Made by a program: the position numbers and the translations under genes. Below the pieces are notes generated by a model. The model ran no database searches. It was not told the origin of the DNA and saw only the letters and a list, made by a program, of their open reading frames with translations. This document shows, piece after piece, positions 2,732-21,008 of a stretch of 64,000 nt of DNA (positions are counted from its first letter, which is position 1; the number at the start of each line of letters is the position of its first letter). Source of the DNA: Qipengyuania pacifica (GTDB taxonomy: Bacteria > Pseudomonadota > Alphaproteobacteria > Sphingomonadales > Sphingomonadaceae); assembly GCF_019857205.1 (NCBI RefSeq), contig NZ_JAHWXO010000001.1:372001-436000 (forward strand), given 5' to 3'.

Positions 2732-3708
2732 TGCCCGGTTCCTTCGGCGCTGCCTTCGCGAAGCGCGCGGGCCGCTGCTTCGCCAGCTATCTCGACGAAG
2801 GCATCGTGCAGGCCGGCGCGCTCGATCGACAGTGACAGGATTCCGGCTTCCCCCTCGATCAGGGGTTTCAGCAAAGCCTCGATTCCGCTCTCTGGCACGG
2901 GGAAATACCAGAAATGGCTGCCGCTGGCCTTCACGTCGTGGCGGGTATCTGCAGGAAGGGCGCTGCACCACAACCCTTCGCCGGTGCGCGTCTCCAACCG
3001 GACCTGCGCAGGAATGCGGTCGCGCGCCACATCCACCGATCCGGCATAGGGCACCTTGCCTCCGGCAATGATCGCCACTTCATCGCACAGCCGTTCGGCG
3101 TGGTGGATGACGTGAGTGGAAAAGATGACTGTCGTTCCGCCCAGGGCCAGCTCGCGAATCATCGTTTCCAGCTTGCCCTGATTGATCGCGTCGAGCCCGC
3201 TGAACGGTTCGTCCAGCACCACCAGCTTCGGGCGATGCACCAGCGTGCCGAGCAATTGTACAGTCTGCGCCATGCCCTTCGACAATTGGCGGATCTGCCG
3301 GTCGATCGCATGGCCCATGCCGTGCCCTTCCAGCAATTCACGTCCACGCGCCTTGCCTTCGACCAGCGGCAGGCCGCGCACTGCGCCCATGAACGCGATC
3401 GCATCGTCGCATTTCATTGCGGGATACAGGCCGCGTTCCTCGGGCAGGTAGCCGATCAGCTTGGCAACTTCGTGCGGGCGGTCGTTGCCGAACACGCGGC
3501 GCACGCCTTCGTCGGGGTCGATGATGCCCAGCAACATCCGCAGTGTCGTCGTCTTGCCTGCGCCGTTGGGGCCCAGAATGCCGTAGATCGCGCCTTCGGG
3601 CACGGAAATATCCACCCCGTCGACAGCCAGCGTGTCGTCGAAGCGCTTGACCAGTCCGCGTGCCTCGATAGCGAGCGGTCGATGGCCGTCGGCCGGGGGT
3701 CGCGTCAT
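2728..3708 (-). CDS. ABC transporter ATP-binding protein, NatA-like
   Basis: ATPase partner of the downstream permease, 326 residues from the chosen ATG. Seen: Walker A GPNGAGKTT, a degenerate signature LSKGMAQ, Walker B VVLDEPFSGLD and the H-loop TVIFSTHVIHHAE. About 100 residues follow the nucleotide-binding domain, as in NatA-type proteins. An in-frame ATG seven codons upstream (at 3729) is also possible; neither has a strong ribosome site. It is divergent from queG with only about 65 bp between them, which must hold both promoters. Confidence 0.88.
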   Translation of the reverse strand: MTRPPADGHRPLAIEARGLVKRFDDTLAVDGVDISVPEGAIYGILGPNGAGKTTTLRMLLGIIDPDEGVRRVFGNDRPHEVAKLIGYLPEERGLYPAMKCDDAIAFMGAVRGLPLVEGKARGRELLEGHGMGHAIDRQIRQLSKGMAQTVQLLGTLVHRPKLVVLDEPFSGLDAINQGKLETMIRELALGGTTVIFSTHVIHHAERLCDEVAIIAGGKVPYAGSVDVARDRIPAQVRLETRTGEGLWCSALPADTRHDVKASGSHFWYFPVPESGIEALLKPLIEGEAGILSLSIERAGLHDAFVEIAGEAAARALREGSAEGTGQ

Positions 3709-17123: not shown

Positions 17124-18785
17124 ATGACTGCCACCGAGCCCCCCGCTTCGCCGAAGCTTCCCGCACTTGACCGCCGCAGCCTTTTAAAGGCCGGCTTGCT
17201 GGGTTCCGGCATGCTTGCCACCCCCCTTTCTGCAAGCCAGCCGGGACGGGGCTTTACCCATGGTGTGGCCAGCGGCGAGCCTGGACCTGATCGCGTATTG
17301 TTGTGGACCCGTTTCCAAGCCGATCAGGATACGCCGCTGGAGTTCGAGGTCAGCGATTCGGTTGATTTCACCCGCAAGATTGCCGGTGGCTCAATCGCCG
17401 CGAGGGCAGAGAACGACTGGTGCTGCAAGACCTTTGCCGAAGGCCTCGAGCCGGCACAGTCGTATTACTTCCGGTTCATTGCGCCGGACGGCAGCATTTC
17501 CGACATCGGCCGCACCCGCACATTGCCCGAGGGGCCAGCCGATCGTTTTCGCATGGCTGTGTTCTCCTGCGCGAACATCGGCTTTGGCTGGTTCAACGCC
17601 TATGCCCATGCCGCGGCAGACGGCAACTTCGACTGTGTGCTGCACCTTGGCGATTATTTTTACGAATACGCCCCGGGTACGTATCCCTCGACCGACGAAA
17701 CCGTTTCCGGCCGCAGCGTGTGGCCCTCGCACGAACTCGTCGCGCTGGCCGATTACCGCGCACGGTACGCGGCGTATCGGCAGGATCCGGACCTGCGGCG
17801 ATTGCACCAGCTTTTCCCTATGATCGCGGTCTGGGACGACCACGAAAGCGCCAACGATTCCTGGGAAGGGGGGGCAGAAAACCATCAACCCGACAGCGAG
17901 GGCGAATGGTCGGTTCGCAAGGCGGCAGCGATGAAGGCCTATCGCGAATGGATGCCGGTATCCGACGAGCCATGGGCAGAATACGAGGTTGGCGACCTCG
18001 CAACGCTCTATCGCCTCGAAACGCGGCTCACGGCACGCGCCAAGCAATTCAGTCTTGGTGACGTGCTGCGAGGTGGCAGCTCGCCGGAGGAAGCCAAGGC
18101 GGCACTCATTGCTTTTCGTGATGGCGACTACAGGGATCCTGCGCGCGAATTGCTCGGTTCTGCTCAGCAGGGTTGGTTGGCGGAAGGCTTCAGCCGCTCG
18201 AAGGCTGCCGGCAAGACTTGGCAGGTCCTCGTCCAACAGGTCTTGATGGGCAACCTCATCTCTTCTCCATCTCTGGCTGCTGCGCTTCCCAAGGATGCGC
18301 CCGACTACATTCGCCAAAGGGTGCTCGCCGGCGCCATGGCCGGGGCAGAGGGCGTACCCTTCAGTATGGATGCATGGGATGGGTATCCCGCCGCGCGTCG
18401 GCGGGTGTTCGAAGCGGCACTGTCAGCGGATGCGAACCTTATCAGCCTTGCCGGCGACACCCATAACGCCTGGGCCTTCGATCTCGATCTCGAGGGAACA
18501 CCGGTCGGTGTGGAGTTCGGGGGCCAGTCTGTAACCTCTCCCGGTTTCGAAGGTTATCTTCCGCAAGTCCCGCCCGATGTGCTGGCCCGGGATGCAGTTG
18601 CAACAAATGCACAGCTGCAATGGATGGATTCGTCGCGCCGCGGATATATGGCCGTCGAACTTACACCCGGCAGCGCCACGAGCGAATACCGCTTCCTTGG
18701 CAGCGTCCGCGAAAAGGGCGCGGGCGTGGTAGCAACAAAGCGGATGACGACCCTCGCAGGCAGCCGCAAGCTGGATATGGGTTGA
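17124..18785 (+). CDS. phoD: Tat-exported alkaline phosphatase D (PhoD) family protein
   Basis: A 553-residue phosphodiesterase/phosphatase. The N-terminus carries a twin-arginine signal DRRSLLKAGLLGSG, indicating folded export to the periplasm. The PhoD N-terminal beta domain (FTHGVASGEPGPDRVLLWTR) comes next. The catalytic domain has SCAN, LHLGDYFYEY, WDDHES and a late LAGDTHNAWAFDL segment supplying metal ligands. Known members release phosphate from phosphodiesters and monoesters during phosphate limitation. No Pho box was identified. Its 3' end abuts the thrS leader with no obvious terminator between. Confidence 0.9.
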   Translation: MTATEPPASPKLPALDRRSLLKAGLLGSGMLATPLSASQPGRGFTHGVASGEPGPDRVLLWTRFQADQDTPLEFEVSDSVDFTRKIAGGSIAARAENDWCCKTFAEGLEPAQSYYFRFIAPDGSISDIGRTRTLPEGPADRFRMAVFSCANIGFGWFNAYAHAAADGNFDCVLHLGDYFYEYAPGTYPSTDETVSGRSVWPSHELVALADYRARYAAYRQDPDLRRLHQLFPMIAVWDDHESANDSWEGGAENHQPDSEGEWSVRKAAAMKAYREWMPVSDEPWAEYEVGDLATLYRLETRLTARAKQFSLGDVLRGGSSPEEAKAALIAFRDGDYRDPARELLGSAQQGWLAEGFSRSKAAGKTWQVLVQQVLMGNLISSPSLAAALPKDAPDYIRQRVLAGAMAGAEGVPFSMDAWDGYPAARRRVFEAALSADANLISLAGDTHNAWAFDLDLEGTPVGVEFGGQSVTSPGFEGYLPQVPPDVLARDAVATNAQLQWMDSSRRGYMAVELTPGSATSEYRFLGSVREKGAGVVATKRMTTLAGSRKLDMG

Positions 18786-18810
18786 GATATCAGCTCGACG
18801 GAGTTATCTG
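18782..18810 (+). promoter_or_regulatory. Candidate promoter of the thrS leader
   Basis: TTGAGA and TATCTG are separated by exactly 17 bp, overlapping the last bases of phoD. Transcription would start near 18817, which is the A of an ATG that opens the threonine-rich leader ORF. If so, the leader message would be leaderless. The hexamers are only moderately good matches, so this is a prediction. Confidence 0.4.
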
Positions 18811-18816
18811 AGGGGC

Positions 18817-18888
18817 ATGACGCCCATGCGCATCACGACCACGACAACTACCACCCCGGGCAACCGGGGGTGGTCGGTCGCGGCTTGA
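18817..18888 (+). CDS. Threonine-rich leader peptide upstream of thrS
   Basis: A short ORF of 23 codons (or 20 from the second ATG at 18826, which has GAGGGG about 10 bases upstream). After MRI come seven consecutive threonine codons, ACG ACC ACG ACA ACT ACC ACC, which sample all four Thr triplets. Then come PGNRGWSVAA and TGA. The pattern resembles the E. coli thr operon leader peptide. It lies directly before threonyl-tRNA synthetase and its codons run into the first arm of a hairpin set. The peptide itself probably has no function beyond sensing charged tRNA-Thr. Confidence 0.75.
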   Translation: MTPMRITTTTTTTPGNRGWSVAA

Positions 18889-18929
18889 GCGATCCACCGC
18901 CGCCCGGTTTCGGGTGGTTGGCGTTTCTT
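18851..18929 (+). terminator. Transcription attenuator before thrS
   Basis: Three alternative stems are visible. Arm 1 (18851-18859, CCACCCCGG) pairs with arm 2 (18864-18873, CCGGGGGTGG). Arm 2 can instead pair with arm 3 (18894-18907, starting CCACC and ending CCCGG). Arm 3 can also form a compact stem CCGCCCG-GTTT-CGGGTGG with arm 4 (18900-18917), followed by TTTCTT. Arm 1 overlaps the last Thr codons. A ribosome stalled there would free arm 2 to capture arm 3 and disrupt the terminator. The terminator T-run is short, so its strength is uncertain. Confidence 0.65.
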
Positions 18930-19025
18930 CCCGAAATCGGAATTCTTCGCAAACGCCGCTTCAAGGCTGCGCCTCCTTGTGCCATGGGCGCGGCAATTAA
19001 CGGCGAAAAGCCCTAGGACGACACG

Positions 19026-21008
19026 ATGACGGAACTTCTCAAGATTAACCTGCCCGATGGTTCGGTGCGTGAAATGGAGCCCGGTTCCACGCCTGCCGAC
19101 GTAGCGGCCGCGATCGGGCCGGGACTTGCGAAGGCAGCCATTGCTGCCCGCGTCGATGGCGAATTGCGCGACATCAATCGTCCATTTGAGAGCGATTCCG
19201 AACTGGCTCTCGTCACGGCCCGCGACGAGGATGACGCGCTTGAACTTGCGCGCCATGATTTTGCCCATGTGCTGGCAGAAGCGGTGCAGGCCCTGTGGCC
19301 CGGCACGCAGATCACTTTCGGTCCATCGACGGATGACGGCTTTTACTACGATGTGAAGGCGCCCGCGGACCGTGACCCGTTCAGCATGGACGATCTTCCC
19401 GCGATCGAGGAAAAGATGCGCGAGATCATCAAGGCGGACAAACCCCTGCGCCGGGAAGTCTGGAGCCGCCAGCAATTGATCGACAAGTGGGAGGCCGAGG
19501 GCGAGGCCTTCAAGGCGGAATGGGCCAGGGAACTGCCGGAAAACGAAGAACTCACGGTTTACTGGTCGGGGGAAGACTGGCTCGACATGTGTCGCGGTCC
19601 TCATCTTGCCAGCACGGGCAAGCTCGACCCGCAGGCCTTCAAGCTCATGCGTGTCGCCGGAGCATACTGGCGCGGCGACCAGAAGAATGCGCAACTCACA
19701 CGTATTTACGGCACCGGCTGGCTCAACAAGAAGCAGCTCAACGCGCATCTGACGCGGCTGGAGGAAGCGGCCAAGCGCGATCACCGCAAACTGGGCCGCG
19801 AGATGGACCTTTTCCACTTGCAGGAAGAGGCGCACGGCAGCGTCTTCTGGCATCCCAACGGCTATCGCATCTGGCGCCAGCTCGAAGCCTATATGCGTCG
19901 CAAGATGGATAAGGCGGGCTATCGCGAGATCAAGACGCCTCAGGTAATGGACGCGCGTCAGTGGGAACAGTCCGGTCACTGGGGCAAGTACCGCGAAAAC
20001 ATGTTCGTTATTCCAGACGAAGTGCCCAATACCGAGGAAGACGGTCCGGTCATCTCCGGTGAAGCCGACTGGATGGCGTTGAAGCCCATGAACTGCCCGG
20101 CCCACGTGCTCGTGTTCAAGCAAGGCATCACCTCCTACCGCGACCTGCCGATCCGGCTGGGCGAGATGGGCTGTTGCCACCGCAACGAGCCGCATGGCGC
20201 GCTTCACGGTCTGATGCGCGTGCGCCAGTTCACGCAGGATGATGCGCATATCTTCTGTACGGAAGGCCAGGTTGTAGAGGAGGTGCAGGCCTTCCTTGCG
20301 CTGGCGGATACGGTCTATCGCGATTTCGGGTTCAGCTATGACATCAAGCTTGCGCTGCGACCGGAACAGCGGTTCGGCTCGGATGCGGATTGGGACAAGG
20401 CCGAACAGGAACTGCGCGACGCGCTGACAGCAAACGGCCTCGAATGGGAAGAATTGCCCGGTGAAGGGGCGTTCTATGCCCCCAAGCTCGAATGGCACCT
20501 GACCGACGCGATCGGTCGCACATGGCAGGTCGGCACGATCCAGTCCGACCGCGTCCTGCCCGACCGCCTCGACGCCACCTATGTCGGAGAGGATGGGGAG
20601 AAGCATCGCCCCGTCATGCTGCACCGCGCGATCTTCGGTTCGTACGAGCGCTTCATCGGCATTCTGATCGAGCATTTCGCCGGTCGCCTGCCCGTTTGGC
20701 TCGCCCCGACGCAGGCGGTGGTCGCTACCATCGTGTCCGATGCGGACGATTACGCCAAGGAAGCCGTCGGAAAGCTGGAGGCCGCGGGGATCCGGGTCGA
20801 CAGCGATCTGCGCAACGAAAAGATCAACTACAAGGTGCGCGAGCATAGCCTCGCGAAGGTTCCGCACCTGCTGGTTGTCGGCAAGCGCGAGGCGGAGGAA
20901 GGCACCGTCGCGGTCCGCACGCTGGGCGAGAAGGACCAGCGCGTGATGAGCCTCGAGGAAGCCATCGACATGCTGCGCACCGAGGCGACGCCGCCCGATC
21001 TGCGATGA
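19026..21008 (+). CDS. thrS: Threonyl-tRNA synthetase
   Basis: A class II aminoacyl-tRNA synthetase of 660 residues charging tRNA-Thr. It has an N-terminal TGS domain (residues 1-65), an editing domain with [10 protein letters not shown] (the HxxxH site that hydrolyses Ser-tRNA-Thr), and a catalytic core with the zinc-binding MNCPAHVL. Motif 2 is around [23 protein letters not shown] and a C-terminal anticodon-binding domain follows. All functional regions look intact. The upstream 240 bp hold a Thr leader peptide and attenuator, suggesting expression rises when charged tRNA-Thr is scarce. Confidence 0.97.

What the first reader, a model, noticed from the sequence alone, without database searches (positions are those of the whole stretch)
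18782..18929. Threonine-coded transcription attenuator controlling thrS
Directly upstream of threonyl-tRNA synthetase is a short ORF with seven consecutive Thr codons covering ACG, ACC, ACA and ACT. It is followed by three mutually exclusive stems (arms 1:2, 2:3, 3:4), the last being CCGCCCG-GTTT-CGGGTGG with TTTCTT. The geometry is that of ribosome-mediated attenuation as in the E. coli thr operon, but placed before a synthetase gene, comparable to pheM before pheST. The described routes for thrS that I know of are translational repression by ThrRS in E. coli and T-boxes in Firmicutes. A peptide-coded attenuator would be a different solution. I cannot verify that it is undescribed.
Basis: partly seen in the sequence, partly recalled or inferred. 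Interest (0 to 1): 0.85.

Follow-up and report, generated by a model that had tools for sequence, protein, structure and literature searches.

The report
Threonine-sensing leader switch before thrS
Many sphingomonad bacteria carry a tiny threonine-rich reading frame and a set of competing RNA hairpins just before the gene for the enzyme that loads threonine onto its tRNA, which looks like a ribosome-read sensor that raises the enzyme when charged threonine tRNA runs short.

Summary
A 23-codon ORF with seven Thr codons in a row (18817-18888) stands before thrS. By a fixed rule, 75 of 190 Sphingomonadales thrS upstream regions carry such an ORF, and a model of the element matches 144 of 396 genomes of the order (eight matches weak). 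In 113 leaders the third base of the Thr codons varies most. Arms 1:2, 2:3 and 3:4 co-vary in 70 sequences and in 43 further ones. Folded alone, the window gives 2:3+4:5 when arm 1 is hidden and 3:4 when arms 1 and 2 are hidden.

The proposed intrinsic terminator is not supported: 1 of 70 sequences has four or more U in a row in the nine bases after the 3:4 stem. A ribosome-read Thr switch on thrS is likely; its output (Rho-type or atypical termination, or translation) is open.

Prior art: a leaderless thrL with two Thr codons before thrS in Streptomyces lividans (PMC8079986), also without a U-rich stretch. My ten literature searches showed no proteobacterial case.

The parts
18782..18810 (+). 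Putative promoter P1: -35 TTGAGA (18782-18787), 17-nt spacer, -10 TATCTG (18805-18810). The leader ATG lies 6 nt after the -10 box, so the transcript is probably leaderless.
   Evidence: Sequence and coordinates. In 70 sequences T (41) and A (38) dominate at -13/-12 from the chosen ATG. A TA[TAG] box ends 5-9 nt before an in-frame start in 67 of 70; that test allows several start candidates, while shuffled upstreams with one candidate give 9%. The scan does not list it as a sigma-70 site. Promoter reading is inferred.
18817..18888 (+). Leader ORF, 23 codons, MTPMRITTTTTTTPGNRGWSVAA
   Evidence: Thr leaders by rule: 48 of 110 and 27 of 80 thrS upstreams.
18835..18855 (+). Run of seven Thr codons (ACG ACC ACG ACA ACT ACC ACC)
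   Evidence: Over five aligned Thr codons of 113 leaders, third-base entropy 1.86 to 0.85, first and second base 0.15 to 0.87; the contrast fades at the last codon, inside arm 1.
18850..18859 (+). Arm 1 (overlaps the last Thr codons), pairs with arm 2
   Evidence: Fold of 18817-18936. Partner-swap z -2.8 in 70 and -2.9 in 43 sequences.
18864..18881 (+). Arm 2, pairs with arm 1 or arm 3
   Evidence: Swap z for 2:3 is -8.6 and -5.7.
18889..18907 (+). Arm 3: 18889-18901 pairs with arm 2; 18899-18906 pairs with arm 4
   Evidence: Swap z for 3:4 is -6.1 and -4.7.
18904..18918 (+). Arm 4: 18911-18918 pairs with arm 3; 18904-18917 pairs with arm 5
   Evidence: fold. Swap z for 4:5 is -9.1 and -3.9.
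18919..18926 (+). Arm 6 (TGGCGTTT), in the loop of 4:5, pairs with arm 7 (crosses 4:5; pseudoknot or alternative)
   Evidence: Swap z -6.9 to -7.1 anchored on 4:5 (-0.8 with an earlier, wider window) and -6.7 in the test set. Not in the window's predicted minimum-energy folds.
18927..18940 (+). Arm 5 (CTTCCCGAAATCGG), pairs with arm 4; weaker complementarity to the thrS start
   Evidence: With the thrS start: found by scanning (z -6.2), -5.0 within clusters, -2.9 in the test set and -1.5 with the broad window.
18951..18958 (+). Arm 7 (AAACGCCG)
18959..18987 (+). Putative second promoter P2 (CTTCAA-N17-CCATGG) between the leader and thrS
   Evidence: Seen by eye in leader-bearing genomes and in several without the leader, e.g. 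L045, L051, L063, L072, L076, L157. Not listed by the sigma-70 scan; no other tool scored it; inferred.
19026..21008 (+). thrS, threonyl-tRNA synthetase
   Evidence: TIGR00418 and Pfam TGS, tRNA_SAD, tRNA-synt_2b, HGTP_anticodon.

Best explanation
A leader-peptide switch that reads charged tRNA-Thr and controls thrS on transcripts from an upstream promoter (P1). With enough Thr-tRNA the ribosome runs through the Thr codons to the stop codon, hides arms 1 and 2, and 3:4 forms. When Thr-tRNA is short the ribosome stalls on the Thr run over arm 1, 2:3 forms, and arm 4, now free, pairs with arm 5; thrS is then expressed. Shown here: conservation of the Thr codons, co-variation of the arms, and the two alternative predicted folds. 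Inferred: stalling, the direction of response, P1, P2. The last step is open; I think premature termination without a U-tract, helped by Rho (whose C-rich site would be exposed when arm 5 is free), is the most likely, at about 0.4 within this explanation, with translational control of thrS and atypical intrinsic termination as the alternatives.
For: Thr leaders before thrS in 48 of 110 and 27 of 80 regions. Thr codons vary most at the third base; 79 of 113 leaders have exactly 10 codons from the last clustered Thr to the stop. Swap tests in 70 sequences and in 43 new ones, with controls at |z| 1.4 or less. RNAalifold on 35 of the 70, with no structure given, picks 2:3+4:5 (27 doubly changed cells against 5.6 in shuffles, 0 of 500 shuffles as high). 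Folds of the window. Two other alphaproteobacterial families, of 67 looked at, have Thr leaders before thrS, one followed by a hairpin plus TTTTTT (L209, L228). C over G from arm 5 on: 23.3 C and 14.4 G in 60 nt against 18.0 and 17.7 in 114 upstreams without the leader by rule.
Against: No expression data. 252 of 396 genomes of the order have no model match, so the switch is dispensable. P2, if real, gives thrS a supply that bypasses the switch. The C excess may come from the arms themselves. No rut site or pause was tested. For 1:2 and 3:4 the number of pairs with a change on both sides (3) is not far above shuffles (37 of 500 as high), though the number of such cells is (0 of 500). In 11 of 70 sequences at least one of 20 shuffles scored as well in the three-helix finder.
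Confidence: 0.8

Rival explanations
1. Translational output: in the Thr-replete state arm 5 is free and pairs with the thrS start, blocking its translation on P1 transcripts; 4:5 releases it.
For: The arm 5 to thrS start window has the lowest z of 84 scanned pairs (-4.8); the finer window chosen from 30 more pairs has -6.2, -5.0 within clusters and -2.9 in 43 new sequences, test fixed beforehand (note; result). Predicted start-site openness is 0.451 (3:4 forced) against 0.500 (4:5 forced), higher with 4:5 by more than 0.05 in 29 of 70 and lower in 5 of 70. In four genomes (L017, L335, L338, L344) the first gene's start follows shortly after the arms (by eye).
Against: The pairing is weak (about -6 kcal/mol) and broken; the broader window fails in the test set (z -1.5, 333 of 5000); the modelled effect is small; the window was found by scanning.
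Confidence: 0.25
2. Classical intrinsic transcription attenuation at 3:4, with a degenerate U-tract that still terminates.
For: Arms 1:2, 2:3, 3:4 co-vary; the window has TTTCTT from 18924; a genome in another family has a hairpin with U6 after its Thr leader (L209).
Against: 15 of 70 sequences have 4 or more U of 9 after the stem, 1 of 70 a run of 4 or more; the site is not in the terminator scan; arms 5 to 7 would be unexplained.
Confidence: 0.2
3. The short ORF makes a functional small protein and the RNA arms are by-products.
For: The ORF is conserved and leader peptides can act in trans, as peTrpL does (start of the abstract of PMC7298713, seen in the listing).
Against: Apart from Thr and residues forced by the arms, the peptide is variable, while the arms co-vary. 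L112 keeps a Thr ORF but lacks arms 3-7 (by eye), which is neutral.
Confidence: 0.04
4. The ACN repeat is a binding site for a protein (for example ThrRS) rather than a set of codons.
For: ThrRS of E. coli controls its own mRNA (recalled; named in a passage of PMC2965389). The repeat overlaps arm 1.
Against: Third-base freedom, an in-frame start at a near-constant distance from a -10-like box, and a mostly fixed codon distance to the stop point to translation; no Rfam match at gathering or E up to 1.
Confidence: 0.04

Closest known systems
thrL-thrS of Streptomyces lividans TK24 (PMC8079986, section 14 read)
   Same: Leaderless short ORF with Thr codons before thrS, reported from RNA-seq; [quoted passage not shown]
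   Different: 18 aa with two Thr codons, in an actinobacterium, one genome, no comparative test in that section. Here 4 to 9 Thr in ten codons (4 being my cut-off), five co-varying pairings, many genera.
thr operon leader of E. coli and pheM-pheST (recalled)
   Same: Cognate-codon leader, arms 1:2, 2:3, 3:4; pheM is also before a synthetase.
   Different: Those end in a U-tract terminator; here it is missing in nearly all sequences examined, and arms 5 to 7 are added.
LEU element of Actinobacteria (PMC1262725, passages read)
   Same: Leader with a run of cognate codons plus a conserved pseudoknot or alternative hairpin.
   Different: Before leuA; its base stem pairs the Leu codons with the Shine-Dalgarno box. 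No sequence relation was tested.
E. coli thrS operator and thrS T-boxes of Firmicutes (recalled)
   Same: Both control thrS.
   Different: One is bound by ThrRS, the other by tRNA itself; here a translated ORF is the proposed sensor. No Rfam family matches.

Membership tests
Leader-peptide (ribosome-mediated) transcription attenuator | Short translated ORF rich in codons of the regulated amino acid, before a cognate gene | tested here: met
   Translation itself is inferred from codon-level conservation.
Leader-peptide (ribosome-mediated) transcription attenuator | Mutually exclusive pairings 1:2, 2:3, 3:4 kept by compensatory change | tested here: met
   1:2 is the weakest (z -2.8, -2.9).
Leader-peptide (ribosome-mediated) transcription attenuator | Intrinsic terminator with U-tract at 3:4 | tested here: not met
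   15 of 70 with 4 or more U of 9, 1 of 70 with a run of 4 or more; not in the scan.
Leader-peptide (ribosome-mediated) transcription attenuator | Expression rises on starvation for the amino acid, depending on the leader codons | not testable with these tools
   Needs experiments.
T-box | T-box consensus and specifier loop | tested here: not met
   No Rfam match in the window at gathering or at E up to 1 in 18700-19060.
E. coli-type thrS operator | tRNA-Thr-like arms bound by ThrRS before the thrS start | not tested
   No model used; only the general Rfam search was negative.

The most novel reading that the evidence does not exclude
A relay attenuator: the ribosome's choice among arms 1 to 4 is passed on through a conserved fifth arm and a crossing 6:7 pairing (an H-type pseudoknot or a further alternative) to an output other than a U-tract terminator, giving Alphaproteobacteria a way to control a synthetase gene that is neither classical attenuation, nor a T-box, nor ThrRS autorepression.
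Probability: 0.4. Interest if true: 0.75.

Novelty: new variant of a known kind. Interest (0 to 1): 0.62.

Why it matters
It would add a ribosome-read route to the known ways of controlling thrS, in a large environmental group, with a downstream RNA machinery (arms 5 to 7) that classical attenuators lack. Leader peptides without obvious terminators have been reported in GC-rich Actinobacteria (passages of PMC1262725, section of PMC8079986); a deeply sampled, co-varying case makes the question of what replaces the terminator directly testable.

Tried and rejected
Column-pair covariation on a MAFFT alignment of 70 was swamped by misalignment; a few pairs of 3:4, 4:5 and 6:7 stood out among others that cannot pair, so I turned to alignment-free tests. 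The first arm finder confused 3:4 with 4:5 and was replaced (no shuffle of 20 as good in 59 of 70, at least one in 11; recount; my notebook's '68ish' was a guess). The 6:7 test with wide windows failed (z -0.8) and was re-anchored on 4:5 before the test set was fetched; the test set used the re-anchored form. A pairing 8:9 around P2 reached z -4.7 in discovery and failed in the test set (-1.6, within clusters -0.7): dropped. Thr or cognate leaders before hom (L302) and before genes found with PF00133 (L303-L305, L307, L310) in the same genome: none seen, a crude scan. Second Thr7 run of the genome (L192): end of a 265-aa ORF, not a leader; the notebook says 13 places for the (ACN)5 pattern, the right count is 14. 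Literature: ten searches, seen as listings; passages of PMC2965389, PMC4833913, PMC1262725, PMC4117421, PMC10117765 and PMC2330054 and section 14 of PMC8079986. Vitreschak et al. 2004 on proteobacterial attenuators was met only as a reference and not read, so a proteobacterial thrS case there cannot be excluded.

Limits of the evidence: the discovery and named sets overlap in part (5 near-copies dropped of 75). Swap tests do not fully remove shared descent, though within-cluster swaps agree. The 35 sequences of alignment A2 were chosen from 70 for a regular 3:4 stem. The 40 regions fetched for the test set were chosen by hand, all with model E of 5e-12 or lower; L234 was left out because its contig length equals that of L173. 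Of 144 model matches, eight genomes have a best E above 1e-5; two of these (G134, G126) have no leader by my scan, and one match (G125) is not on the thrS contig. The model search over 396 genomes used stricter filters that lose weak matches.

Full report
What was checked. The window holds a 23-codon ORF (18817-18888) with seven consecutive Thr codons, ending 137 bases before thrS. Upstream is a PhoD-like phosphatase gene in the same direction, downstream a TauE/SafE-family gene. Seven ACN in a row occur at two places in the whole genome; the other is the end of a 265-aa ORF, ExbB-like as recalled.

Conservation. Of 80 named loci, 27 do with a slightly wider window, among them Erythrobacter, Pelagerythrobacter, Parerythrobacter, Croceicoccus, Altererythrobacter, Allopontixanthobacter, Parapontixanthobacter, Novosphingobium, Blastomonas, Sphingorhabdus and Sphingomonas. 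After dropping 5 near-copies 70 remain, the window's own included. A covariance model from 35 of these matches 144 of 396 genomes of the order, in 24 of 84 genera, all in the window's own family group (one place per genome but for G492; eight matches weak). I read 52 matches from genomes not yet in hand: 49 have a Thr leader before thrS, 3 before another gene; 43 are left after removing 6 near-copies. On a thrS tree of 81 rows the leader needs 10 changes against 23.9 for shuffled labels, 0 of 500 as low (L112 counted as leader-bearing), so it is old and often lost, or gained more than once.

The Thr codons are read as codons. In 113 leaders, over the five best aligned Thr codons, third-base entropy falls from 1.86 to 0.85 towards arm 1 and first and second base entropy is 0.15-0.87; the contrast is small at the last of the five. 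All four ACN codons are used (ACC 435, ACT 165, ACG 157, ACA 41); 79 of 113 have exactly ten codons between the last clustered Thr and the stop. The start codon follows a TA-containing -10-like box at leaderless distance in 67 of 70 by a lenient rule (profile).

The RNA. I compared, without alignment, the duplex energy of each arm with its own partner and with partners from other species. In 70 sequences own partners are better for 1:2 (z -2.8), 2:3 (-8.6), 3:4 (-6.1) and 4:5 (-9.1); five control pairs lie between -0.6 and 1.3. Pairing 6:7 gave -0.8 with wide windows and about -7 when anchored on 4:5. In 43 new sequences the values are -2.9, -5.7, -4.7, -3.9 and -6.7, controls between -0.5 and 1.2; swapping only within clusters gives -2.2, -4.7, -2.7, -2.5 and -5.6, controls 0.3 to 1.4. 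RNAalifold, given no structure, finds 2:3 together with 4:5 on 35 sequences, 9 of 20 pairs with a change on both sides; 27 cells show such a change against 5.6 in shuffles, and sliding the partners destroys the pairing. 1:2 and 3:4 give 13 cells against 4.3, but only 3 pairs against 1.6 (37 of 500 shuffles as high). For the window itself, hiding arm 1 gives 2:3 plus the 4:5 hairpin; hiding arms 1 and 2 gives 3:4. 6:7 crosses 4:5 (order 4-6-5-7), so it is a pseudoknot partner or a further alternative; it is not in the window's minimum-energy folds.

The output. The U-tract expected of an intrinsic terminator is absent in most sequences: after 3:4, 15 of 70 have 4 or more U in 9 bases and 1 of 70 a run of 4 or more; after 4:5, 23 of 70 and 4 of 70; after 6:7, 4 of 70 and 4 of 70. 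The scan lists no terminator there. The 60 bases from arm 5 on are C-rich and G-poor compared with upstreams without the leader, as a Rho site would be, but the arms may cause this. Arm 5 also shows correlated complementarity to the thrS start: found by scanning, kept within clusters (z -5.0), then tested with a prediction written down first: z -2.9 with the narrow window, -1.5 with the broad one. A folding model gives only a small change in start-site openness (0.451 to 0.500). I therefore leave the output open, with Rho-type termination slightly ahead.

Second promoter. A block CTTCMRG-N17-CCATGG-like lies between the arms and thrS and is kept by eye in several genomes without the leader. 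If it is a promoter, thrS has a basal supply and the switch acts on the P1 transcript only. The sigma-70 scan lists neither P1 nor P2.

Outside the order. Of 109 genomes of other orders of the class with a thrS match I took the upstream of 67 (one cut to 161 nt by its contig end). Two have clear Thr leaders (L209: MFKRPTIETTATTTLLEGP followed by CCCTCC...GGAGGG-TTTTTT; L228: MRTHPVLRSTATTTTTATGGRWRMRA), one is doubtful (L206). These share no arm sequence with the sphingomonad element by eye, which suggests that Thr leaders before thrS arose more than once or are old and rare.

Compared with what is known. A leaderless thrL with two Thr codons was proposed before thrS in Streptomyces lividans, again without a uridine-rich stretch (PMC8079986, section 14 read). 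Leader peptides before trpS and leuS and the leuA pseudoknot element are described in Actinobacteria (PMC1262725, passages read). The Caulobacter paper shows leader ORFs before trpS and an ilv operon (PMC4117421, passages); the Sinorhizobium paper shows a leaderless trpL (PMC10117765, passages). The word thrS does not occur in the main text of either. In the listings of my ten searches I saw no proteobacterial thrS leader; the comparative study of 2004 on proteobacterial attenuators was not read. E. coli thrS operator, pheM and T-boxes are recalled.

Verdict. A conserved, ribosome-read Thr switch on thrS: likely. A classical terminator: not supported. The extra arms make it a new variant of a known kind.

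Noticed in passing
L017 (L017:2234-2737:-), L335, L338, L344: In four genomes the Thr leader and arms stand before a small gene (MRYYIDTEFNGTGG..., 168 aa in L017; Pfam PF16473, an exoribonuclease-like domain, 17.6 bits, below its cut-off of 27). In L017 thrS follows it directly; for the other three this was not checked.
   Followed up: partly
L112 (before its thrS at 3001): A Thr-containing leader ORF and arms 1 and 2 are present but the stretch with arms 3 to 7 is missing, by eye: a natural deletion in a metagenome-assembled genome, or an assembly fault.
   Followed up: no
L209 and L228: Thr leaders before thrS in two other alphaproteobacterial families, one with a hairpin and U6.
   Followed up: partly
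window 18959-18999: GC-rich inverted repeat around the putative P2 promoter; its pairing co-varied in the first 70 sequences but not in the 43 test sequences.
   Followed up: yes
L007, between arms 5 and 7: Extra sequence between arm 5 and arm 7 compared with its relatives, so this linker tolerates inserts.
   Followed up: no
window 18804-20867 (-): A 687-codon open frame runs antisense to most of thrS and the leader; in GC-rich DNA this is usually mechanical.
   Followed up: no
L192 773-1570: 265-aa ORF (ExbB-like as recalled) ending in ATTTTTTTVKK, the other seven-ACN run of the genome, about 3 kb from hom.
   Followed up: yes
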